From Streptomyces sp. KMM 9044 (lineage in GTDB: Bacteria; Actinomycetota; Actinomycetes; Streptomycetales; Streptomycetaceae): a stretch of 64,000 nucleotides of DNA. The stretch is from the NCBI RefSeq assembly GCF_024701375.2, contig NZ_CP113910.1, forward strand, positions 3,720,001-3,784,000, written 5' to 3'. Shown here piece by piece: positions 14 through 9,314 of the stretch (its first letter is position 1; each line of letters begins with the position of its first letter). Made by a program: the position numbers and the translations under genes. The notes under the pieces were generated by a model, which searched no databases, was not told the DNA's origin, and worked only from the letters and a program-made list of their open reading frames with translations.

Positions 14-1608
14 AGCTTGTTCTTTATCTACCAAGATCTTCCGGGCTTGCCGATGGCCTTGAGGGTCTCGGGGCGTTTGACGGTTTTGCCGACGTCGTAG
101 CGGGGTGCCTGGTGTCTGTTCTTGGCGCCGGAGGGTCGTCCGGGGCCGGCGCCGCGGGGTTTGGGAACGCGGGCCGGGCAGGCGAGGTGAGCGCGGATGT
201 TCCTGAACCCCCGGCGGACCCGGGCCGGGCTGAGCCGGTCCGAGGCGGTGGGTCTCTCCCAGGGCCGGCGGAGGTCTTCGGCGAGAGGGCGGGCGAGCCG
301 GAGCTGGGTGTGAGCGACGATCAGGATCCAGGTCCAGTGGTCCGCCGCCTCGGGAGTACGGAGTTTCGGGGTGGTCCAGCCGAGGGTCTGCTTCGCGAAG
401 CGGAAGGTGTGCTCCAGATCGAAGCGACGGAGAAATGCCTGCCAGAAACGGTCCACATCGTCCGGGGTGGCGCCGGTCTTCGAGGACCATAACCACACCG
501 GCGGAGCGTCTCGTTCCTTTGACAGGTGCTCGACCTTCAGCCGGACCAACGTGCCCTCAACCAGGGGTAGTTCACCGTCGTGGTCGAGCCAGGACGAGCG
601 GTGGGTGAGCCTTGGGTGGACTCGGTCCCATGCCTGTGTTTCGGCCTTGCCGTAGTTGGTGGTGTCGGTGACGGTGGTGATCGCGGGCTCGGGCCAGGTC
701 TCCGGCTTGGTGAAGCGGAACTCCGGTCCGTGCTTGGGCGGCCTGCCGTTCGTCCCCGGCCGGCGGGGCGGCTTCGGCAGCCGCATGACGCGGTCGGAGC
801 GGACCCGGCCGACCAGCTCGACCGGCAGATCGCGCAGGACCCACGCCAGGCGGGTGACGTCATAGCCGACGTCGCTGACGATCACGATATGCGGGTCCCC
901 GTTCTGCCACTGGCCCGCGGTGATGAGCCGCTCGACGACTCCTCGCAGCTGGGCGGCGGTGACCGCGGTCGCGTCGTCCACCGGTCCGAGCCGGACCGCG
1001 TCCAGGATCGCGGTCCAGGACGTGGCGCCCGGCTCCAGCACGGCGACGAAGGAGTAGGGCCAGCCCGGAATGAACTGCGACGCCGTCTTCGCACGGCCGT
1101 AGACGTGGCAGAACAGCCGTTCCGCCGAGCACGGCGCGTCCGAGCGAAGCCACGATGACACGTCGACCGCCAGCACCAGGCGCCCGCCGTCGAAACGCGG
1201 CAGCGACAGCCCGGCCAGCACCGTCCGCAGCCGATCGGTGTCGATGCGGCCGTGGTTCAGGCCGCCGTACATCGCTCCGTGTCCACGACGATGTTCGGGC
1301 AACAGTGTCAGGTCCACCGGGGACTTCACCGCACCGTCGGCACACAGCACCGCGTCCGCCAGCTCGAACAACTCATCCCGCCGGGCGGTCAGACACTCGT
1401 AGAACTCTCCCCAGAAGCGTGACGCTTCCGCGAACGCTTCCCTCCGTACGGCATCAGGCAGCAGACTCACCCTCACGGCCTTCGTCTTGGTCAGTGCACC
1501 TTGGTCGGAGCACATAATCAGACGAAGGCCGCCCCCGCGTCCGGCGAATCCCTAGGTGAGCGACTCAGTTCGAGACACCGTTCGAGGCCGGAAGAAAAAG
1601 AACAAGCT
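14..1608 (-). mobile_element. Insertion sequence, IS701/IS4-superfamily-like, probably complete
   Basis: A single transposase gene is bracketed by an imperfect terminal inverted repeat: AGCTTGTTCTTT at 14-25 is matched by its exact reverse complement at 1597-1608, and the next two inner bases match at one of two positions. Both ends are flanked by a CA dinucleotide (12-13 and 1609-1610), which could be a very short target duplication or chance. The boundaries are inferred from this repeat alone. The element lies at the outer edge of an IS pile next to the ISAs1-type element. Confidence 0.6.
28..1515 (-). CDS. DDE transposase (IS701/IS4-like)
   Basis: 495-residue transposase filling the insertion sequence. 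A DDE catalytic triad can be read: the first Asp in VLAVDVSSW (about residue 118), the second in VIVSDVGYD (about 215) and the Glu in DLEHTFRFAKQTLGW (about 376), which resembles the YREK-type region of IS4/IS701 enzymes. The C-terminus is Arg/Lys-rich with a GPGRPSGAKNRH stretch, as in many actinomycete transposases of this type. The ATG start is preceded by no strong Shine-Dalgarno. The reading frame is uninterrupted, so it may still be active. Family placement rests on motif pattern only; a different IS4-clan family is possible. Confidence 0.8.
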   Translation of the reverse strand: MCSDQGALTKTKAVRVSLLPDAVRREAFAEASRFWGEFYECLTARRDELFELADAVLCADGAVKSPVDLTLLPEHRRGHGAMYGGLNHGRIDTDRLRTVLAGLSLPRFDGGRLVLAVDVSSWLRSDAPCSAERLFCHVYGRAKTASQFIPGWPYSFVAVLEPGATSWTAILDAVRLGPVDDATAVTAAQLRGVVERLITAGQWQNGDPHIVIVSDVGYDVTRLAWVLRDLPVELVGRVRSDRVMRLPKPPRRPGTNGRPPKHGPEFRFTKPETWPEPAITTVTDTTNYGKAETQAWDRVHPRLTHRSSWLDHDGELPLVEGTLVRLKVEHLSKERDAPPVWLWSSKTGATPDDVDRFWQAFLRRFDLEHTFRFAKQTLGWTTPKLRTPEAADHWTWILIVAHTQLRLARPLAEDLRRPWERPTASDRLSPARVRRGFRNIRAHLACPARVPKPRGAGPGRPSGAKNRHQAPRYDVGKTVKRPETLKAIGKPGRSW

Positions 1609-1651
1609 CAGTCACCGAAAGCGAAACGGTCCACCGACTCCGTCGGCAGAC

Positions 1652-3126
1652 CCACGGCCCCGGCGTAGTTGTGTGATGTCCGGTCCCGTGGTGGTTGGTC
1701 AGATGCCGTAGACGGCGAAGGCGTCTTCGTGGCGGAGGAGGTCGCGGCGGGCGTGGGCGATGTTGGCGCGTCCGGCGAGGCGGATGGTGCTGATCGCCAG
1801 GTTGCGGAAGCCGGCCAGGGCTCGGGGTGCTGTACCGGTCCTGAGCTGGGAGTTGTCTTCTCGGAAGGTGACGTCCCGCACCCAGTGGATCTTGTTTTCC
1901 ACAGTCCAGTGGGTTCTCTCGTAGTGGTTGAGGTGAGCGGGGCCGGCGAGGTCGGGCGGCAGGCTGGTGACGCCGAAGACGATCTCCTTGCTGGTCCATT
2001 CGTCGTCGAGGTTGCCGGTGTCGCGGCGGAGGCGGAAGACCTGGGATGCGCCGGGGAACAGGGTGTCGTCGGCGGGTGCGGTGCGCAGGGTGCGGCGTTC
2101 GGTGCGGCCGTGGCCGCGGTCGTCGTCGATCGCGGTGGTCTCGGTGAAGTCGGCGTCCGCGCCGGTCAGCAGCGCCTGGGCGGCGGCGTGGGCGAGGGGC
2201 TGGTTGCCCTTGAGGATCAGGACGTAGTGGCTGTGGAGAGGGCCTGTGATCAGGCGGGCGGTCTTCTTCGTGGTGTGCAGCGCGTCCAGGGTGAACACCC
2301 TTCCGGGCAGGTCGAGTCGGGTGAGCAGGGCCCGTGCGGCCTCGCCCTCGCCGCGCTTGTCGGGGACCTGCCTCTGGCCCAGGACCGCGCCGCTGGTGTG
2401 GTCGATCGCGCCGACCAGGAAGACCCGTCCGCTCTCGGTGCGGGCGCCGGCCAGGGCCTTGCCGTCCAGGGCGGCGGTCGGCAGCAGCCCGTCCGGCACC
2501 GGGTGCTCGGCTGAGCGTTGAGCGGCGCGGCGCTGTTCGCGTTCCACCGGTCCCGGGGTGGCGGGGATCTCGGGCGCGGGGACGGTGCCGCGCGCGAGGT
2601 CTGTGGTGTATTCGCAGGTCACGGCGTCCAGGGCGTCGGCGTCCAGATGGGCGAGCACTCGCCGGAAGGTGCGCTCGCTCGGCACGAGGTAGCGGCCGGC
2701 CAGCGGGTCGTACCGGGCACCGATGCGGGCCAGTTTCGCTTGCGGGGCACGGGTCGCCCACTGCCAGATCGCGGCGATCGAGTCGCCGCCGATCACCAGC
2801 GTCGCGCACGCGGTCAGTGTCAGGATCACCGCGAGGGCGTGGCGTCGGCCACGCTTCGCGCGCAGGTCCGGGACCTGCCGCAACCTGCTGACCAGCTTGG
2901 ACTCCACTGCCGCAGGGCCGGTGGCGAGCTCGGCCTCCCACAGGGCGAGGTCGGCGAGTTGGCCAACGGCAGGGGGGATCGGCGAAGATACGGGCACGAG
3001 CGCGACTCCTGTGACGATCTTTTGGCGTAGAGACCTGAAAGATCATCAGAAGTCGCGCTCGTCCTGCAACCAGCCACATCAAACCGGGGCAGAACAACTC
3101 AAGGGAGAACTACGCCGGGGCCGTGG
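1652..3126 (-). mobile_element. ISAs1-family insertion sequence
   Basis: A 19-bp perfect inverted repeat, CCACGGCCCCGGCGTAGTT at 1652-1670 with its reverse complement at 3108-3126, brackets an intact ISAs1-type transposase. I take this repeat as the IS termini. No target-site duplication is visible, and the right end sits inside the OrfB reading frame of a degraded IS3 element whose continuation is not found on the left side. This suggests a deletion accompanied or followed the insertion. Exact termini are inferred, because ISAs1 ends are not well conserved. Confidence 0.6.
1699..2997 (-). CDS. ISAs1-family transposase
   Basis: 432-residue transposase, full length for the ISAs1 family. The N-terminal third matches the DDE_Tnp_1-associated region (VPDLRAKRGRRHALAVILTL, then SERTFRRVLAHLD). 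The catalytic domain shows AALDGKALAGA (first Asp), FTLDALHTTKKTA (second Asp), YVLILKGNQ, and the Glu-bearing ERTHWTVENKIHWVRDV followed by REDNSQLRTG and RNLAIS, all family hallmarks. The frame is open throughout, so the enzyme may be functional. The alternative longer frame on the same strand is Arg/Pro-rich and a shadow of this gene. Confidence 0.93.
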   Translation of the reverse strand: MPVSSPIPPAVGQLADLALWEAELATGPAAVESKLVSRLRQVPDLRAKRGRRHALAVILTLTACATLVIGGDSIAAIWQWATRAPQAKLARIGARYDPLAGRYLVPSERTFRRVLAHLDADALDAVTCEYTTDLARGTVPAPEIPATPGPVEREQRRAAQRSAEHPVPDGLLPTAALDGKALAGARTESGRVFLVGAIDHTSGAVLGQRQVPDKRGEGEAARALLTRLDLPGRVFTLDALHTTKKTARLITGPLHSHYVLILKGNQPLAHAAAQALLTGADADFTETTAIDDDRGHGRTERRTLRTAPADDTLFPGASQVFRLRRDTGNLDDEWTSKEIVFGVTSLPPDLAGPAHLNHYERTHWTVENKIHWVRDVTFREDNSQLRTGTAPRALAGFRNLAISTIRLAGRANIAHARRDLLRHEDAFAVYGI

Positions 3127-3265
3127 TAATAGCCAGACTTGGACACGCCGAGCCGTTCACACATGAACTCGACGGAATACGCGCACTCCGCTGTGCCGAG
3201 CCGCATCGTTTCGATGAACTCGTACTTGCTCGCTACCGGGGATCCTTCGCGAAGTACGCTGCGGC
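3099..3265 (-). pseudogene. IS3-family transposase OrfB, N-terminal fragment
   Basis: In the -1 frame relative to OrfA, the sequence reads SKYEFIETMRLG..YSVEFMCERLGVSKSGYYHG, the conserved start of IS3 OrfB (HTH_21 region). It then runs into the ISAs1 inverted repeat and terminates at a TGA (3099-3101). The whole rve integrase domain is missing, so no transposase is made. The first residues would come only from ribosomal frameshifting. Confidence 0.75.
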
Positions 3266-3592
3266 TTTTTTCAAGAAGGAGACTTCCGCCTCCAGTTCAC
3301 GGATGCGCCGGTCCTGTTCCTTCAAGCGCGCCCGCTCATCGAGCGTCAACGGTGCACCGGCAGCTGGCTCGTTCCGTTTCTGGTGTTTCTTCACCCAGCC
3401 CCGGAGTGTCTCCGAGTTCAATTCGAGCTCGCGGGCCGTCTCCGAGATGGTCTTGCTGGACCGGAGTGCCATCTGGACGGCTTCCTCACGAAACTCCGGG
3501 GTGTACTTGCTGGGTGGCGCCACTTCGAACTTCCTCATTTCCTTGACAGAACAACCCTTTGGGTCCCTGTCCGGAAACTCCGGGGCACCTCA
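3127..3592 (-). mobile_element. IS3-family insertion sequence, truncated remnant
   Basis: Intact OrfA plus the first part of OrfB of an IS3-family element. Reading the minus strand, the terminus at 3592 begins TGAGGTGCCCCGGAGTTTCC, close to the TGA..GCCCCGG..TTTCC ends of IS51/IS911-group elements. The opposite end is missing: OrfB breaks off at about 3126, where the ISAs1 terminus begins. The element is therefore dead and predates the ISAs1 insertion. Confidence 0.75.
3233..3538 (-). CDS. IS3-family transposase OrfA (HTH protein)
   Basis: 101-residue OrfA. Residues of about 10-50 (YTPEFREEAVQMALRS, then SETARELELNSETLRGWVKKH) form the HTH of the HTH_Tnp_1/InsE family, and the C-terminal half is a leucine-zipper-like coiled coil (ARLKEQDRRIRELEAEVSFLKKAA). 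An A6 run on the coding strand (3266-3271) near the 3' end is where IS3 elements usually shift -1 into OrfB, and OrfB sequence does follow in the -1 frame. With OrfB truncated, OrfA alone could at most act as a repressor of related elements. Confidence 0.85.
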   Translation of the reverse strand: MRKFEVAPPSKYTPEFREEAVQMALRSSKTISETARELELNSETLRGWVKKHQKRNEPAAGAPLTLDERARLKEQDRRIRELEAEVSFLKKAAAYFAKDPR

Positions 3593-3685: not shown

Positions 3686-3921
3686 GGGTGTGGCTCCTTT
3701 GGAGGGACGGCCCTAGCTGCGTGAACTGCGGCTTGAGGCACGCCCGAGTGATCGACTCGACCACGACAGCGGGTCACGCGGTGACCGGCACCCTCCGCGC
3801 TGTCGATCTTGATGCGACGCGCGGGCGTGACCTGCTGGTTCCGAAAGGATCTCCACGACCGGCAGTCGAGCCCAACCGGCAAATGCCCAGCTCAGCCTGT
3901 CCCTCCAAAGGAGCCACACCC
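3686..3921. mobile_element. MITE-like element, copy 1 (236 bp)
   Basis: 236-bp element with a perfect 23-bp terminal inverted repeat (3686-3708 against 3899-3921), outer bases GGGTGTGGCTCC. I see no difference from the copy at 6889-7124. There is no transposase gene inside. Flanks are GACCAGGTT on the left and GATCGGCAT on the right, so there is no 9-bp duplication, unlike copy 2. It interrupts tniB at the right flank. The missing duplication suggests this copy is the product of recombination between two elements with loss of the DNA between them. Confidence 0.85.
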
Positions 3922-4362
3922 GATCGGCATCCGGTCCCAGCCTTCTTCGGTGAAAGCGCCTTCCTCGGAGATCCGCTGGCGGTGGAACTTCTTGGCGAAC
4001 GACAGCACGGCGGTGGTCTTGCCCAGGCCTGGGAAGGCGTCAAGGGCGATGGCTCCCTTGACCTTGTCGCCGTCCTGGTCGTTGCTGTTGACGATGTCCC
4101 ACAGGTCCTCGTGGAGTGCGGCCATCTGCGGGGTCTGGAGCGGGCCGAGGTTCGCGTGCCACTTGCGGCGGAGACGGTCGTACTCGATCCGGGCCGCGTC
4201 GCTCAACGCCTTCAGCTGCCGGCGGGTCAGTAGCTCGGGCCGGGGCCTCGGTAGCGCCTCGGCCATGCGCTTGAACCCTTCCTGACGCGAGAGCGTGAGA
4301 CGGTCCAGCCGCGTCCTCAGCTCATCGGCGGCCTCGGGCGTGCGGCGGTTACTCATCGGCAT
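3922..4362 (-). pseudogene. tniB: TniB/TnsC-like AAA ATPase, 3'-truncated
   Basis: N-terminal part of a TniB/TnsC-type transposition ATPase: a helical N-terminus, then VKGAIALDAFPGLGKTTAVL, a Walker A (GxxxxGKT) with the TniB-like DAFPGxGKTT context. After residue of about 147 (DRMPI) the frame enters the MITE, so Walker B, sensor motifs and everything downstream, including any tniQ/tnsD target-selector gene, are lost. The start overlaps the tnsB stop (ATGCCGATGAG over GAGTAA). Two ATGs six bases apart could serve. In Tn7-like systems this ATPase couples target choice to the transposase; here it cannot. Confidence 0.85.
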
Positions 4363-6481
4363 CCTTCAGCGCGGTCGCGTAGAACTCGTCGTCGTCCGCC
4401 AGGTCCTCGAAGTCGGTGGGGTCGTCGTCTCCGCCCTCCGCTTCGTCGGCCTCTTCCGGCCCGGCCTGCGGCGCGTCACCTTCCTCGCCCAGCGCACGGC
4501 GTACCGAGGGAAGGGTCACGGCTGTCTGGCTTCCGACGTCCGGCAGCTCGATGGCCTGCTCGCGAGAGAGCCGAAGCGCCATGCGTCGCTCGGCCGGCGT
4601 GCTGCCCAGCCCCGCGTTCCAGCGCTCCAGCAAGTCGGCAACCGCGAGACGGTCGTCGGGGTAGGCGTACTTCCTCACCGCGAGCTTCCTGGCGAAGGCC
4701 AAGGCCTCCTCGCTCAGCGGCATTCCCGCCGTCGGCGCGTGTTCCCACTCCAGGGCGTGCCAGACCCTCTCCAAGTCCCGGAAGTAGATCTTCGTGATGT
4801 CATCGGGGTTGACCTGGAACGGCCAGTGCTCGTGCTTGCCCCGCCAGGTGTAGGGGCTCTTCGAACCAGGCGGCGGCAGACCCGGGCCGCGGTAGCGACG
4901 GCCGTCGATCTCGACGCCGTAGTGCTGGATCGTGCGCCACTTCGTGGGCAGGAACTCGAAGGCGAGATCCCGGTCGCGGGGCACCTCGACGTAGCCGGCC
5001 CTCGCCATGCCGTGTTCGAACATCTGCGCTGGCGACATCCGTAGCCCCGGCAACCCCGGGTCAACGAGACCAGAGTGCGGTCGACAGTGAAATGTCGTCG
5101 CGGTCCACTCTCGGATGATTTCTTCCAGCTCATCCAAGAAGAAGAACGCGTCTGCCTCCGGATCCTCGCCGCGGGAGTGGATGTCCGGGCCCTTGTAGCC
5201 GGGCAGAGCTTGCAGCAGATCCTCACGCAGGGTGCGGAAAAACCGCTCCACCGGCCCCTTGTCCCGTCCTGTGCGCAGCCGGGCCGGCTGGATGGAGATG
5301 CCCATCCGGCGGCAGACGCTGCTGAGATGGTCCGAGACGTAGACCTTGCCGTGGTCGACCACCAGCGTCTCCGGGACGGTCGGTGGCGAGGCAAGGCCAA
5401 TCCCCTCGACGGCGACGTCGACCAGCGCGGTGCGCGGGATGCCGTGCTCAGGCCAGACCGCCCCGCGCGGCCAGTCCTTCCCGAACGGCCGGGGGCGGAA
5501 GGACTGGAAGAGCACCGCTGCCACGTCCACGGCCTTCGTCGAGACCGGCGTCACCCTGATCCCGGTGATACAGCGGGTGTACCAATCCATCCCCACCGAG
5601 AGCTCGGCCTGCACCCACCGCAGCGTGAGCGGATCGAACGCGAACACATCAAGCCGCGTGGAGTCCATCAGCAGGTACTCACCCGGCCTGGTCGGCCGCA
5701 ACTTCCCGTAAGGTCCCTCCGGCCGGTCAGCGATGTCCCGGTTCCGCTTCGTACTCAGCCGGAACAGCGGATGCCGACGCTCCAGCTCTGCCAGCACCCG
5801 GTAGGCGACCGCTCGGCTCGGCAGTCTCACCACCTCGGGTCCATAGCGGGCAATGACGCGGGCCCTGGTGCGGTCGATCACCATCTTGCGCGACGGCTTC
5901 GAGGCATCGGTGTGCTCGACCATCACCTCCAGCGCGGTCTCGACCCACCGCTCGTCGACCCGGTCAGCAGCAGACTTCCCCGGCCGTGTCCGCGGCGCCA
6001 GCCTTGCCTCGCCGCCACGCTGGTATGCCGCCGCCCACCGTCGCACCGTGCGGTCCGCGACGCCGAGTTCGACCGCCTTGGCGGCATATCGGGCGTCCAG
6101 GGGAAGGTCCGGTGCGAACTGCGGGCGCGGCTCCCCGTCGCGGGGCAGTTCACGACTCCCGGAGCGGAAGCCTGTCAGCACCTCCCGGACGTGCTCTGCC
6201 TGCTCGATCACCTGCTGTCGTTGCGCCTCCGACAGCTGCCCCAGCACGACCCCTGCGAGTTCCTCCTCGTCGGTGGCCCTGGGGCCGTCCTGAGCAGGAA
6301 TGATTGCTGCCCGGTCGGAGAAGAGCAGTTCCTTCAGGCTGATCCGCAGCAGTCCTCCGCGAGCGTTCTTGAGGACCACCTCGTTGCCCGCTGCGGTCGC
6401 GGCCGTCTCCACCACCTCGACAGTCTCGCCGTCGTAACGGAAGTGGCTGCCGATGCCCACCCGGGTGCCGGCCCCACTCAC
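4349..6481 (-). CDS. tnsB: Tn7-like transposase, TnsB/TniA type (DDE, Mu-transposase C-terminal)
   Basis: About 710 residues. An N-terminal HTH (GVADRTVRRWAAAYQRGGEA) is followed by an rve/DDE domain with Asp in LLMDSTRLDVF (about 271), Asp in TLVVDHGKVY (about 374) and Glu in DKGPVERFFRTLRE (about 410). The last two are exactly 35 residues apart (DD35E). A Mu-transposase C-terminal beta-barrel region and an acidic tail follow. I choose the GTG at 6481 because it overlaps the tnsA stop (GTGA), the usual tnsA-tnsB coupling; an ATG 69 bp upstream lies inside tnsA. The frame is intact, so this is the one complete protein left of the transposon. In Tn7 TnsB cuts and joins the 3' ends. Confidence 0.92.
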   Translation of the reverse strand: MSGAGTRVGIGSHFRYDGETVEVVETAATAAGNEVVLKNARGGLLRISLKELLFSDRAAIIPAQDGPRATDEEELAGVVLGQLSEAQRQQVIEQAEHVREVLTGFRSGSRELPRDGEPRPQFAPDLPLDARYAAKAVELGVADRTVRRWAAAYQRGGEARLAPRTRPGKSAADRVDERWVETALEVMVEHTDASKPSRKMVIDRTRARVIARYGPEVVRLPSRAVAYRVLAELERRHPLFRLSTKRNRDIADRPEGPYGKLRPTRPGEYLLMDSTRLDVFAFDPLTLRWVQAELSVGMDWYTRCITGIRVTPVSTKAVDVAAVLFQSFRPRPFGKDWPRGAVWPEHGIPRTALVDVAVEGIGLASPPTVPETLVVDHGKVYVSDHLSSVCRRMGISIQPARLRTGRDKGPVERFFRTLREDLLQALPGYKGPDIHSRGEDPEADAFFFLDELEEIIREWTATTFHCRPHSGLVDPGLPGLRMSPAQMFEHGMARAGYVEVPRDRDLAFEFLPTKWRTIQHYGVEIDGRRYRGPGLPPPGSKSPYTWRGKHEHWPFQVNPDDITKIYFRDLERVWHALEWEHAPTAGMPLSEEALAFARKLAVRKYAYPDDRLAVADLLERWNAGLGSTPAERRMALRLSREQAIELPDVGSQTAVTLPSVRRALGEEGDAPQAGPEEADEAEGGDDDPTDFEDLADDDEFYATALKDADE

Positions 6482-7451
6482 GCCGGCCTCCACAGCACAT
6501 GTGCAGGAGCCAACGGTTGCCGAAGGTCCGTCGTGAACCGTCCTGACCACAGCAGGTGGAAGACCCCGGCTCGAACGAGCTCCGGGGCAAACCCGCCCAC
6601 AGCGCCGATAGCCTCCCCAAGGGCCATCCCGTCCACGATGGCCCCATCGGCCGCTTCCAGCAGGTCAGCGGGGAAAAGCCAGTCACGGCGGTATCCGGCG
6701 AGGAATCGCACGTTCTCCAGCAACGCCGGTTCCGGTTCGCTCAGCACCTGATACCCCCACCCGCGGTCCTGCACGACCTGGCGTGTCCAGGCGAAGGTGA
6801 AGGCCACCTCCGGGTTCTCCAGTCGGCGACTCGGCTTCACATCGACGACCAGTGGCCCCGCCCGCGTCAGCAGCAGGTAGTCGGGGATGGGTGTGGCTCC
6901 TTTGGAGGGACGGCCCTAGCTGCGTGAACTGCGGCTTGAGGCACGCCCGAGTGATCGACTCGACCACGACAGCGGGTCACGCGGTGACCGGCACCCTCCG
7001 CGCTGTCGATCTTGATGCGACGCGCGGGCGTGACCTGCTGGTTCCGAAAGGATCTCCACGACCGGCAGTCGAGCCCAACCGGCAAATGCCCAGCTCAGCC
7101 TGTCCCTCCAAAGGAGCCACACCCGTCGGGGATGTGCTTACGGACTTTGCCTTGCACCCGTGCCTTCAGCAGGAAGGGCTGGGCCACGATGTGCCGTACT
7201 GACGGGTCGAAGTCGGCGAACAGTAGCCGTGCAAGCTCCAGTCTCGACTCATAGATCACGTGGTCGCGTACCGTCGCCGACCAGTACGTACCCGAGTAGT
7301 GCCGCTGCCCGCTGTACCAGCGGAACGTACGCCACGGCGATGCCTGCGACAGCCGGGAGATATCCACACCCTCCCAGGGGCGGTCCTCCTCAACACCCCC
7401 ATCGGCACGACGGCGGCTCACTGTCACACCCTCAGCCGGTCCGGTCTCCAC
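6478..7451 (-). pseudogene. tnsA: TnsA-like transposon endonuclease, split by a MITE
   Basis: Two halves of one TnsA-type PD-(D/E)xK nuclease flank the MITE. Removing the 236-bp element and one copy of its 9-bp duplication leaves 729 bases, i.e. 243 codons, in one frame (242 aa plus stop). The restored protein has Glu68 (YESRLELARL), Asp109 (KHIPD) and Lys124 (VVDVK), matching Tn7 TnsA E63/D114/K132. The MITE sits immediately after Asp109, so the active site is destroyed. TnsA makes the 5' cuts that give cut-and-paste transposition. The start is uncertain: GTG at 7451, or GTG at 7421 behind GAGGG. Confidence 0.9.
6889..7124. mobile_element. MITE-like element, copy 2 (236 bp), with 9-bp target duplication
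   Basis: Identical in length and, as far as I can read, in sequence to copy 1, with the same 23-bp perfect terminal inverted repeats. It is flanked by a perfect 9-bp direct repeat, GTCGGGGAT, at 6880-6888 and 7125-7133, so this is an unrearranged insertion into tnsA. A non-coding interior and 9-bp duplication fit a miniature element mobilised in trans by a DDE transposase. No parent element is present in the window. Confidence 0.92.
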
Positions 7452-7518
7452 GTTCCACCCCCTGTCGGCCGCTCAGCGCGACACGAGGAGAGTGGCATCA
7501 AGCACGTACCGCAAGGAG

Positions 7519-7566
7519 GCACAGTTCAGGGGCGTCACCTGATCGGGTGACGCCCCTGAACTGTGC
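7519..7566. terminator. 21-bp perfect hairpin downstream of dnaB
   Basis: The arms 7519-7539 and 7546-7566 are exact reverse complements around the loop TGATCG. It lies 87 bp past the dnaB stop and 68 bp before the tnsA start on the same strand. It most simply works as a transcription terminator, lacking a U-tract as is common in Streptomyces. It could instead be a structured part of the transposon end. Confidence 0.65.
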
Positions 7567-7652
7567 TTCTCCAGCGGGTGTCAGAAGTGCCATCGTCATG
7601 ACACGACGACGGAGAAAATGACGCGGAAACCGAGAACCCACAAGGGAGCCGG
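7567..7652. other. Candidate right end of the Tn7-like element next to the dnaB stop
   Basis: Read on the minus strand from the dnaB stop, about 30 bp of spacer leads to CGTCATTTTCTCCGTCGTCG and then repeated TGTCA/TGACA words (GTGTCATGACGATGG..CTTCTGACAC, 7578-7605). Tn402/Tn5053-type ends begin TGTCATTTTC, so this differs at the first base only. The geometry, gene 3' end then transposon end then tnsA, copies Tn7 at glmS. The other end is lost, so the terminus and target duplication cannot be verified. Confidence 0.35.
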
Positions 7653-9131
7653 TCAGGTCTGCGCCATGTCCACGAAGCGGGAGTAGTGGCCCTGGAAGGC
7701 GACCGTGATGGTCGCCGTCGGGCCGTTTCGGTGCTTGGCCACGATCAGGTCGGCCTCGCCCGCGCGCGGGGACTCCTTCTCGTACGCGTCCTCGCGGTGC
7801 AACAGGATGACCATGTCTGCGTCCTGCTCGATGGAACCCGACTCACGCAGGTCGGAGACCATCGGCTTCTTGTCGGTTCGCTGCTCGGGGCCACGGTTGA
7901 GCTGGGAGAGCGCGATGACCGGGAGTTCCAGTTCCTTGGCGAGCAGCTTGAGGTTACGGGACATGTCCGAGACCTCCTGCTGACGGCTCTCCGCCCGCTT
8001 GGAACCGCCGGACTGCATCAGCTGGAGGTAGTCGATGACGACCAGCCTCAGGTCGTTACGCTGCTTCAGCCGACGGCACTTGGCGCGGATCTCCATCATC
8101 GACAGGTTCGGGGAGTCGTCGATGTAGAGCGGCGCCGCCGAAACGTCCGGCATCCGGCGTGCGAGGCGGGTCCAGTCCTCGTCGGTCATCGTGCCGGACC
8201 GCATGTGGTGCAGAGCGACCCTGGCCTCGGCGGACAGCAGGCGCATCGCGATCTCGTTGCGCCCCATCTCGAGTGAGAAGACCACACTCGGCAGGTTGTG
8301 CTTGATGGACGCGGCACGGGCGAAGTCCAGCGCGAGCGTCGACTTGCCCATCGCGGGGCGCGCGGCAATGACGATCATCTGCCCTGGATGCAGCCCATTG
8401 GTGAGCGAGTCGAAGTCCGTGAACCCCGTGGGCACACCGGTCATCTCACCGCTGCGCGAACCGATCGCCTCGATCTCGTCGAGCGCGCCCTCCATGATGT
8501 CGCCGAGCGGGAGGTAGTCCTCACTGGTGCGCTGTTCGGTGACGGCGTAGATTTCGGCCTGCGCACGATTGACGATCTCGTCGACGTCGTCGTCGGCCGC
8601 ATACCCCATCTGGGTGATGCGCGTACCGGCTTCGACCAGGCGGCGCAGCACGGCGCGCTCGTGCACGATCTCCGCGTAGTACGCCGCGTTGGCCGCCGTG
8701 GGCACCGTCTGGACGAGGGTGTGCAGATACGAGGCCCCGCCCACCTTGTTGATCTCACCGCGTTTGGTCAGCTCCGCGGCGATCGTGATGGGGTCGGCCG
8801 GCTCGCCCTTCGCATAGACGTCGAGGATGGCCGTGTAGACGGTTTCGTGAGCCGGTTTGTAGAAGTCGTGGCCCTTGAGGATCTCGACGACATCGGCGAT
8901 GGCGTCCTTGGACAGCAGCATGCCGCCCAGAACGGACTGCTCGGCCTCGAGGTCCTGCGGGGGCACCCGCTCGAAGGCGGAGCCCGTGCCCTCCCATCCG
9001 CCGGAGTCACGGCCGCGGTCGTGTTGCTCGTCGCGGCCCCGTCCCCCGTCCTCACGGCGCCGGGAGGCGGGCAGCCGATCACTGGGTCCACTGTCGGCCC
9101 ACGGGTCGTCCAAGGGCTCGGAAATGCTCAC
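7653..9131 (-). CDS. dnaB: Replicative DNA helicase DnaB
   Basis: 492 residues. The N-terminal helical domain starts FERVPPQDLEAEQSVLGGML, after an Arg/Asp-rich disordered leader of about 60 residues. The RecA-like C-terminal domain has Walker A ARPAMGKST (about 255-263), FSLEMGRNEIAMRLL, Walker B LRLVVIDYLQLM (about 364), and the DnaB motifs LNRGPEQRTDKKP and SDLRESGSIEQDADM. No intein is present. I choose the GTG at 9131 because GGAGGTGG lies six bases upstream; an in-frame ATG at 9170 would add 13 residues. DnaB unwinds DNA at the fork; its loader candidate is the DciA-like gene at 50927. The gene reads away from oriC toward the degraded transposon that abuts its 3' end. Confidence 0.97.
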   Translation of the reverse strand: MSISEPLDDPWADSGPSDRLPASRRREDGGRGRDEQHDRGRDSGGWEGTGSAFERVPPQDLEAEQSVLGGMLLSKDAIADVVEILKGHDFYKPAHETVYTAILDVYAKGEPADPITIAAELTKRGEINKVGGASYLHTLVQTVPTAANAAYYAEIVHERAVLRRLVEAGTRITQMGYAADDDVDEIVNRAQAEIYAVTEQRTSEDYLPLGDIMEGALDEIEAIGSRSGEMTGVPTGFTDFDSLTNGLHPGQMIVIAARPAMGKSTLALDFARAASIKHNLPSVVFSLEMGRNEIAMRLLSAEARVALHHMRSGTMTDEDWTRLARRMPDVSAAPLYIDDSPNLSMMEIRAKCRRLKQRNDLRLVVIDYLQLMQSGGSKRAESRQQEVSDMSRNLKLLAKELELPVIALSQLNRGPEQRTDKKPMVSDLRESGSIEQDADMVILLHREDAYEKESPRAGEADLIVAKHRNGPTATITVAFQGHYSRFVDMAQT

Positions 9132-9314
9132 CGAGCCACCTCCTCCCGTCCGCCGAGCGGACCTCGCCATGCCCCTCTTTTTCTACGGCACGGCACTGAC
9201 AAATAGGACGCCCGACTCCGGTTGCCACGCGCCGGTTTTGCGACCTTTTGGAAACCGGCGGACGGAGCATGTGCCGGACCACCGTAGGCCCCTCCGCACC
9301 GTCAGCCAATCTGG

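What the first reader, a model, noticed from the sequence alone, without database searches (positions are those of the whole stretch)
3922..7652. Tn7-like transposon remnant placed exactly like Tn7 at glmS, but at the 3' end of dnaB
Seen: dnaB stop, a gap of about 30 bp, a TniA-type end-like sequence, then tnsA-tnsB-tniB reading away from dnaB with overlapping starts and stops. Known: Tn7 inserts just past the glmS stop with its tnsA-proximal end nearest the gene, because TnsD reads the gene's 3' coding end. Inference: an actinomycete Tn7-like lineage may use the 3' end of the essential helicase gene dnaB as its attachment site. The target-selector gene (tniQ/tnsD) and cargo are gone here.
Basis: partly seen in the sequence, partly recalled or inferred. 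Interest (0 to 1): 0.75.

Follow-up and report, generated by a model that had tools for sequence, protein, structure and literature searches.

The report
Tn7-like transposons homing to dnaB
A widespread family of jumping genes in Streptomyces, mycobacteria and their relatives inserts itself just behind the end of dnaB, the gene for the enzyme that unwinds DNA for copying, much as the classic transposon Tn7 does behind a different gene.

Summary
The finding holds and relatives make it stronger. In the window a Tn7-like element begins 10 bp past the dnaB stop (terminal base 7642). The other end is at genome position 3705017, followed by the same 5-bp target duplication (TCCCT), so the element is 22,626 bp. 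A MITE splits tnsA, about 11.5 kb of insertions split tniB, and tniQ is cut short. An older element remnant lies behind it.

Of 78 named loci with related tnsB, 50 start behind dnaB, 18 lie elsewhere and 10 cannot be told. Those at dnaB span five actinomycete orders. Ten relatives plus the window's element have both ends and exact 5-bp duplications at dnaB; in five, joined flanks align across the joint to uninterrupted genomes. Over 55 junctions the distance is fixed to dnaB coding sequence, not to the stop codon. Intact elements carry a TnsD-sized TniQ. Some plasmid-type dnaB genes are used too.

Best reading: a Tn7-like lineage whose TniQ reads the dnaB 3' end. Position, ends and distance rule are shown; TniQ binding is inferred. 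Ten searches of an open-access library found no report of dnaB as a Tn7-type attachment site.

The parts
7653..9170 (-). dnaB, the gene whose 3' end serves as attachment site; intact
   Evidence: Pfam DnaB_C 360 bits; 505-aa open frame
7643..7647 (-). left copy of the 5-bp target duplication TCCCT; the right copy is at L035:5012-5016 (genome 3705012-3705016)
7567..7642 (-). transposon end next to dnaB: terminal TGTGGG, then repeats of the TnsB-site kind, three direct (one of them short) and one inverted, by eye
   Evidence: sequence; 60 related dnaB junctions. The other end is L035:5017 (genome 3705017), outside the window
7519..7566 (-). perfect inverted repeat (21-bp arms, 6-base loop) between the end and tnsA; use unknown, perhaps a terminator or regulator site
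   Evidence: similar in L037 and, shorter, L094 by eye
7125..7451 (-). tnsA, first part, broken by the MITE
   Evidence: 66-79% identity to tnsA of several relatives at dnaB, 89% to L037
6889..7124 (.). 236-bp MITE inside tnsA, 9-bp duplication GTCGGGGAT
6478..6888 (-). tnsA, second part
4349..6481 (-). tnsB transposase, open throughout (GTG start chosen by comparison with relatives)
   Evidence: 96% to a Streptomyces uncialis protein
3922..4362 (-). tniB/tnsC, first part; the second part is L035:11730-12437 (-), and tniQ is L035:10120-11733 (-), both outside the window
3686..3921 (.). second MITE copy, at the edge of about 11.5 kb of insertions in tniB; the 9-bp ATGCCGATC is found on both sides of the whole insert
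28..3538 (-). insertion-sequence transposase genes nested in the element (DDE_5 at 28-1515; DDE_Tnp_1 at 1699-2997; HTH_Tnp_1 at 3233-3538)

Best explanation
This is a broken copy of a Tn7-like transposon (tnsA-tnsB-tniB/tnsC-tniQ plus cargo, TGTAGG/CCTACA ends) from an actinomycete lineage that homes to the 3' end of dnaB. Most likely mechanism: the large TniQ (a TnsD-type protein of about 880 aa with C-terminal helix-turn-helix domains) binds the last conserved codons of dnaB, around RF(V/T)(D/N)MA, and recruits the TnsC ATPase. TnsA and TnsB then insert the element 31-36 nt downstream of the start of the Phe codon, past the stop codon, with the tnsA end facing dnaB, making a 5-bp duplication and leaving dnaB whole. 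Shown here: position, orientation, ends, duplications, distance rule, gene content, repeated insertion. Inferred: that TniQ is what reads dnaB and does so with its C-terminal domains; the cut-and-paste chemistry (known for Tn7).
For: 50 of 78 named loci begin behind dnaB. 11 elements at dnaB have both ends and exact 5-bp duplications; exchanged duplications gave 47 of 1634, about 1.2 expected in 41 loci where 10 were seen. Joined flanks align across the joint to uninterrupted genomes for L042, L046, L072, L183, L184. 51 of 55 junctions lie 31-36 nt from the Phe codon, and offset from the stop falls with tail length (slope -1.13, r -0.63, p 2.6e-7; slope -0.94 without outlier L113). Streptomyces with near-identical DnaB (99%, G130) carry a different element (TnsB 72%) at the same offset, so insertions recur. 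TniQ was found in 86 of 114 oriented loci; all 24 aligned have PF06527 and 20 a LysR-type HTH. dnaB-located TniQs differ most from the others in residues 671-800 (median identity 42.5% among themselves, 27.4% to others). Site label needs 10 changes on the TniQ tree, fewer than in any of 300 shuffles, and 12 on the TnsB tree.
Against: 18 of 78 named loci, and 7 of 19 genus loci at 57% TnsB identity or more, lie elsewhere. TniQ clade and site do not map one to one: L183 and L044 are at dnaB with TniQs of the clade that holds other-site elements L041 and L051, and L099 has a dnaB-like helix but sits elsewhere. With the finer labels the dnaB clustering on the TniQ tree is modest (18 changes, shuffled mean 22.8, as low in 14 of 500). 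No binding or transposition was tested. Five of 10 joined-flank tests gave no match to a true empty site.
Confidence: 0.88

Rival explanations
1. One ancient insertion beside dnaB, passed down by descent, rather than repeated homing.
For: The arrangement is found across several orders.
Against: Only 48 of 392 Streptomyces genomes carry the end. Offsets and duplications differ between loci. Close relatives carry different elements. Tandem elements show successive insertions, as in the window, L054, L083 and L105.
Confidence: 0.03
2. The site is chosen by something other than TniQ reading coding sequence: a DNA structure, a terminator, or replication or transcription at dnaB.
For: TniQ binding was not tested; a few dnaB-located elements have TniQs of another clade.
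Against: The distance is set from the coding motif, not the stop, and divergent dnaB copies in other surroundings (plasmids, and a 43%-identical paralogue in L028) are hit at a similar distance.
Confidence: 0.07
3. A domesticated tnsABC-tniQ module that works with DnaB as host function (TnsC is an AAA+ ATPase, as are helicase loaders), not a mobile element.
For: Constant neighbour on the same strand.
Against: Ends, target duplications, varied cargo, absence from most genomes and frequent decay: in 16 of 30 end-bearing loci read the end is there without tnsA in the about 1.5 kb held.
Confidence: 0.02

Closest known systems
Tn7 (TnsABC+D, attTn7 behind glmS)
   Same: Same gene set and order at the start of the operon, same orientation to the target gene, 5-bp duplication, insertion a fixed distance past a conserved gene end, selector protein with TniQ domain. 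TnsD covers the last 36 bp of glmS and insertion is about 20 bp past the stop (PMC2918618, passages)
   Different: Target gene dnaB, not glmS; insertion mostly 5-14 bp past the stop; TnsB only distantly alike (E 4e-7); selector of about 880 aa with no solved relative found by sequence
Second clade of Tn7-like transposons of Benler et al. 2021, dominated by Actinobacteria and described there as not experimentally characterised (PMC8649781, passages and one section)
   Same: Probably the home of these elements (inference; no tree with their set was made)
   Different: The word dnaB does not occur in that main text
Tn7706 of Rhodococcus erythropolis (PMC12915292, passages)
   Same: tnsA, tnsB, tniB, tniQ element of actinomycetes; a Rhodococcus plasmid element with 63.7% TnsB identity to the window's may be this or a relative
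   Different: Reported on plasmids and genomic islands; no dnaB site named in the text
Tn7-like elements with other TniQ/TnsD targets (tRNA genes, parE, comM) and CRISPR-associated transposons (PMC10293859, PMC11406308, passages)
   Same: One core machine with exchangeable selectors aimed at conserved genes
   Different: dnaB is not mentioned in either text

Membership tests
Tn7-like transposons | TnsA endonuclease beside TnsB transposase | tested here: met
   PF08722 in L042 and L072 TnsA, just under and just over the cut-off; TnsB related to Tn7 TnsB. In the window tnsA is broken and its pieces have no Pfam match
Tn7-like transposons | TnsC/TniB AAA+ ATPase | tested here: met
   PF05621 and AAA_22 in L104 and, weakly, in the window element's second tniB part; VchTnsC E 2.6e-10
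Tn7-like transposons | TniQ-domain target selector | tested here: met
   PF06527 in 24 of 24 aligned relatives and in the window element's broken tniQ
Tn7-like transposons | TGT...ACA ends with arrays of TnsB-type repeats | tested here: met
   binding itself not tested
Tn7-like transposons | 5-bp target duplication | tested here: met
   window element and 10 relatives at dnaB
Tn7-like transposons | Fixed-distance, oriented insertion past a conserved gene | tested here: met
   51 of 55 junctions 31-36 nt from the Phe codon
Tn7-like transposons | Cut-and-paste transposition with TnsA and TnsB | not testable with these tools
   needs an experiment
Tn7-like transposons | Target immunity | tested here: inconclusive
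   Tandem elements exist; the pairs with readable TnsB repeats are too few
Tn7 proper | glmS attachment site read by TnsD | tested here: not met
   site is dnaB
Tn5053/Tn402 family | No TnsA; targets resolution sites (recalled) | tested here: not met
   tnsA-like gene before tnsB in the window and in most loci with upstream DNA
CRISPR-associated transposons | Cas genes and CRISPR array in the element | not tested
   No Cas or array search was run; only some cargo ORFs were scanned

The most novel reading that the evidence does not exclude
dnaB homing lets one selector do the two jobs that Tn7 divides between TnsD (safe chromosomal site) and TnsE (plasmid vehicle). Actinomycete plasmids often carry their own dnaB, so the same TniQ that finds a harmless chromosomal site also finds a plasmid to travel on. 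The element sits behind plasmid dnaB in two Mycolicibacterium plasmids (L197, L203); an end sits behind a 70%-identical dnaB copy on a 128-kb Streptomyces contig (L204); and one element sits behind a 43%-identical dnaB paralogue (L028) while that genome's main dnaB is empty (L123). Distances from the Phe codon are 33, 31, 32 and 34 nt (the first three counted by hand).
Probability: 0.4. Interest if true: 0.8.

Novelty: new variant of a known kind. Interest (0 to 1): 0.68.

Why it matters
It names an attachment site, in an essential replication gene, for Tn7-like elements of actinobacteria, a group described in 2021 as experimentally uncharacterised (PMC8649781). It offers a defined landing place for site-specific insertion in Streptomyces and relatives. 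It gives a natural series of TniQ proteins with known targets (dnaB, and other recurring genes) from which the rules of TniQ-DNA recognition could be worked out. It explains a recurring island behind dnaB that carries varied cargo, in one case a Lamassu-type defence pair.

Tried and rejected
Considered and rejected: that tniQ and cargo are gone (found outside the window); a single inherited insertion; a domesticated helicase partner. Dropped before counting: 2 of the first 10 duplication matches (L069, L080) because their right ends do not look like ends (about 1.2 chance matches were expected). Three of 30 end-bearing loci (L147, L156, L172) look like chance (by eye). In one search, L117 was wrongly put among the empty sites: it carries an end itself, so the short L044-L117 alignment is not counted as an empty-site match. 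Rfam found nothing in 7 loci with other sites. The TnsB repeat words (25 words in 67 ends) were looked at as a possible immunity code; the tandem pairs are too few to say. One search stopped with an error after printing the rows used here. The printed list was cut; one search recomputed from the stored result. One search used offsets typed by hand and left out one row of offset 10 by mistake (n = 53, should be 54). TniQ rows under 600 aa were left out of the trees (68 of 86 used), and then rows of unknown site and rows with short TnsB (57 used). A TniQ structure prediction was asked for and had not finished; nothing rests on it.
Full report
What is in the window. dnaB (7653-9170, minus) is intact. 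Past its stop come 10 bases (CCGGCTCCCT) and then a transposon end, TGTGGGTTCTCGG.., with repeats of the TnsB-site kind (7642-7567) followed by a perfect inverted repeat (7519-7566). tnsA is split by a 236-bp MITE (6889-7124, 9-bp duplication). tnsB (6481-4349) is open throughout. tniB breaks off at 3922 in another MITE copy.

The rest of the element lies outside the window. In the 20 kb to the left (L035) come the second part of tniB and 537 aa of tniQ, followed by another transposase ORF. Then come ORFs that by eye resemble cargo of other elements (a 104-aa ORF as in L046 and L092, a 487-aa ORF as in L104). The right end GAGAACCTACA follows, directly followed by TCCCT, the five bases that precede the left end. 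The element runs from genome 3705017 to 3727642, 22,626 bp. Its tniB holds about 11.5 kb of inserted DNA, with the 9-bp ATGCCGATC on both sides. Overlapping the right duplication starts another left end (TGTGGGATCCCAGATCCC), and 1.6 kb further on there is a tniQ fragment 93% identical to residues 775-879 of L072 TniQ. This is an older element pushed away from dnaB by the newer one. Gene order shared with G027, a genome with no tnsB match, resumes about 2.1 kb past the right end.

Relatives. A scan of one genome for each of 84,980 species with the window's TnsB gave 78 loci (100 candidates, best 80 kept). By my labels, 42 have the end right behind dnaB and tnsA within about 450 bp; one of them, L062, was judged from only 39 bp upstream. 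Eight more have the end behind dnaB but tnsA 0.6-3.3 kb further on. Ten cannot be told (contig edges, near-duplicates or a preceding element). Eighteen lie elsewhere. Orders at dnaB (50 loci): Mycobacteriales 22, Kitasatosporales 20, Pseudonocardiales 3, Streptosporangiales 1, Micromonosporales 1, unassigned 3. In the unnamed genus sample, of 19 fetched loci with TnsB identity of 57% or more, 10 are behind a dnaB, 2 unknown and 7 elsewhere. None of the 12 fetched loci at 33-48% shows dnaB in the short upstream DNA held. dnaB homing thus looks like a habit of one TnsB clade, not of all actinomycete Tn7-like elements.

Ends, duplications, empty sites. Of 41 dnaB loci with enough DNA, 10 showed a right-end motif followed by the locus's own 5-bp sequence; exchanging the sequences among loci gave 47 of 1634, about 1.2 expected. 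Eight of the ten have convincing ends. Two more (L183, L184) came from longer stretches of unnamed chromosomes. With the window's element that makes 11 at dnaB. Joined flanks of the 10 relatives aligned across the joint to uninterrupted genomes for 5 (L042, L046, L072, L183, L184). L083, L105 and L044 run into what looks by eye like a second, older end; L092 and L104 gave no match. Among 12 further genomes with an end at dnaB but no full element, four stretches without transposition genes also have both ends and exact duplications (L179 615 bp, L182 3266 bp, L187 1894 bp, L189 997 bp). Four elements at other sites are bounded in the same way (L067, L068, L070, L073).

Frequency. The dnaB 3' signature was found in 295 of 392 Streptomyces genomes. 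TGTRGG 4-16 bp past the stop was found in 48 of 392 (49 sites), none for the reversed pattern, about 2 expected. Of 30 of these loci read, 11 have tnsA next, 16 have end-like DNA (by eye) without tnsA in the about 1.5 kb held, and 3 look like chance.

Distance rule. Over 55 distinct junctions the offset from the stop ranges from -5 to 18, but 51 of 55 lie 31-36 nt from the Phe codon of the conserved RF(V/T)(D/N)MA. Offset falls as the C-terminal tail gets longer: slope -1.13, r -0.63, p 2.6e-7; slope -0.94 without the outlier L113 (hand-typed). Related sequences are not independent, so the p value is a guide only. This is what a protein reading coding sequence would give, and it resembles Tn7, where TnsD covers the last 36 bp of glmS (PMC2918618, passages seen).

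The selector. TniQ was found in 86 of 114 oriented loci; the other 28 are mostly short loci that end before it. Of 68 rows of 600 aa or more, 49 are 760-920 aa as called. All 24 aligned have PF06527 and 20 have a LysR-type HTH near the end. In 58 rows, the gap between dnaB-dnaB and dnaB-other identity is largest in residues 671-800 (42.5% against 27.4%; N-terminus 45% against 40%), where many dnaB TniQs from Streptomyces to Mycobacterium share a stretch like LPDLAREAGMSTANMARWA. Against a simple rule: L183 and L044 sit at dnaB with TniQs of another clade, L061 and L083 are intermediate, and L099 has a similar helix elsewhere. With seven labels the dnaB group needs 18 changes on the TniQ tree (shuffled mean 22.8, as low in 14 of 500). 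With two labels and unknowns left out it needs 10 (shuffled mean 15.5, as low in 0 of 300), and 12 on the TnsB tree (as low in 3 of 300).

Second dnaB genes. Of 55 plasmid records with a strong TnsB relative, three have dnaB just upstream, judged against the 60 dnaB records listed of 1054. Two are plasmids (Mycolicibacterium aubagnense, L197; M. alvei pJCM12272, L203). The third (Tsukamurella, L199) carries ssb and rpsR close to dnaB and is probably chromosomal, and its offset (14) is outside the rule. A 128-kb Streptomyces contig (L204) has an end behind a dnaB copy about 70% identical to the window's. L028 sits behind a 43%-identical dnaB paralogue while that genome's main dnaB (L123) is empty. 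Four other plasmid dnaB genes read (L198, L200, L201, L202) are empty. Other plasmid copies are not at dnaB: L194 and L195, both with exact duplications, and L196.

Literature. Ten searches of the held open-access library showed no paper that names dnaB as a site of a Tn7-like element. Tn7-like with dnaB and attachment site gave none; Tn7-like with Streptomyces and dnaB gave none. Find-in-text shows no dnaB in PMC10293859, PMC8649781, PMC11406308, PMC12915292, PMC12765450 and PMC12231136 (passages only, plus one section of PMC8649781). Four papers holding dnaB with Tn7 and tnsB were listed. In two of them dnaB is mentioned for other reasons (PMC10991518, PMC11208146, passages); the other two (PMC3332091, PMC6464166) were seen only in the listing. 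Subscription papers, preprints and supplements were not searched, so a prior report cannot be excluded.

Noticed in passing
window 6889-7124 and 3686-3921: A 236-bp MITE (ends GGGTGTGGCTCC.., 9-bp duplication in tnsA) with 13 copies at 99% identity or more over at least 236 of 239 bases in this genome, one partial copy and one at 90%: a recent burst.
   Followed up: partly
transposon ends at 67 dnaB loci: The TnsB-type repeats carry a six-base word that differs between elements: 25 words in 67 ends (GTCGGA, GTCCTT, TTCATA, GTCATT, GGCACA ...). Two random distinct ends share it in about 6% of pairs. It may set which elements are immune to each other.
   Followed up: partly
window/L035 (right end 5017), L054, L083, L105: Tandem elements behind dnaB; in the window's genome the older one lies farther from dnaB and its first base is part of the newer one's duplication.
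   Followed up: partly
L014 and L070; L006 and L048; L009, L041 and L051: Recurring other sites of related elements: behind an ORF that looks like a GH15 glucanase (name recalled), behind an OmpA-like ORF (name recalled), and at an intergenic stretch with no Rfam match in L041 and L051.
   Followed up: partly
G000:C1:2773051-2775231 (L004, L193): The same genome holds a second related element (TnsB 59%) with its own tniQ, not at dnaB.
   Followed up: partly
L044:16389-19889: Cargo of one dnaB element is a LmuA/LmuB pair of the Lamassu defence system (E 1e-90 and 8e-144).
   Followed up: partly
L113 near 5797: The end sits inside the last codons of dnaB, and the TAG within TGTAGG serves as the stop codon.
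   Followed up: no
L197:8139-9263: The plasmid database labels this gene in the tnsC position as a bleomycin resistance gene (rgi prediction); its place in the operon suggests the label is wrong.
   Followed up: no
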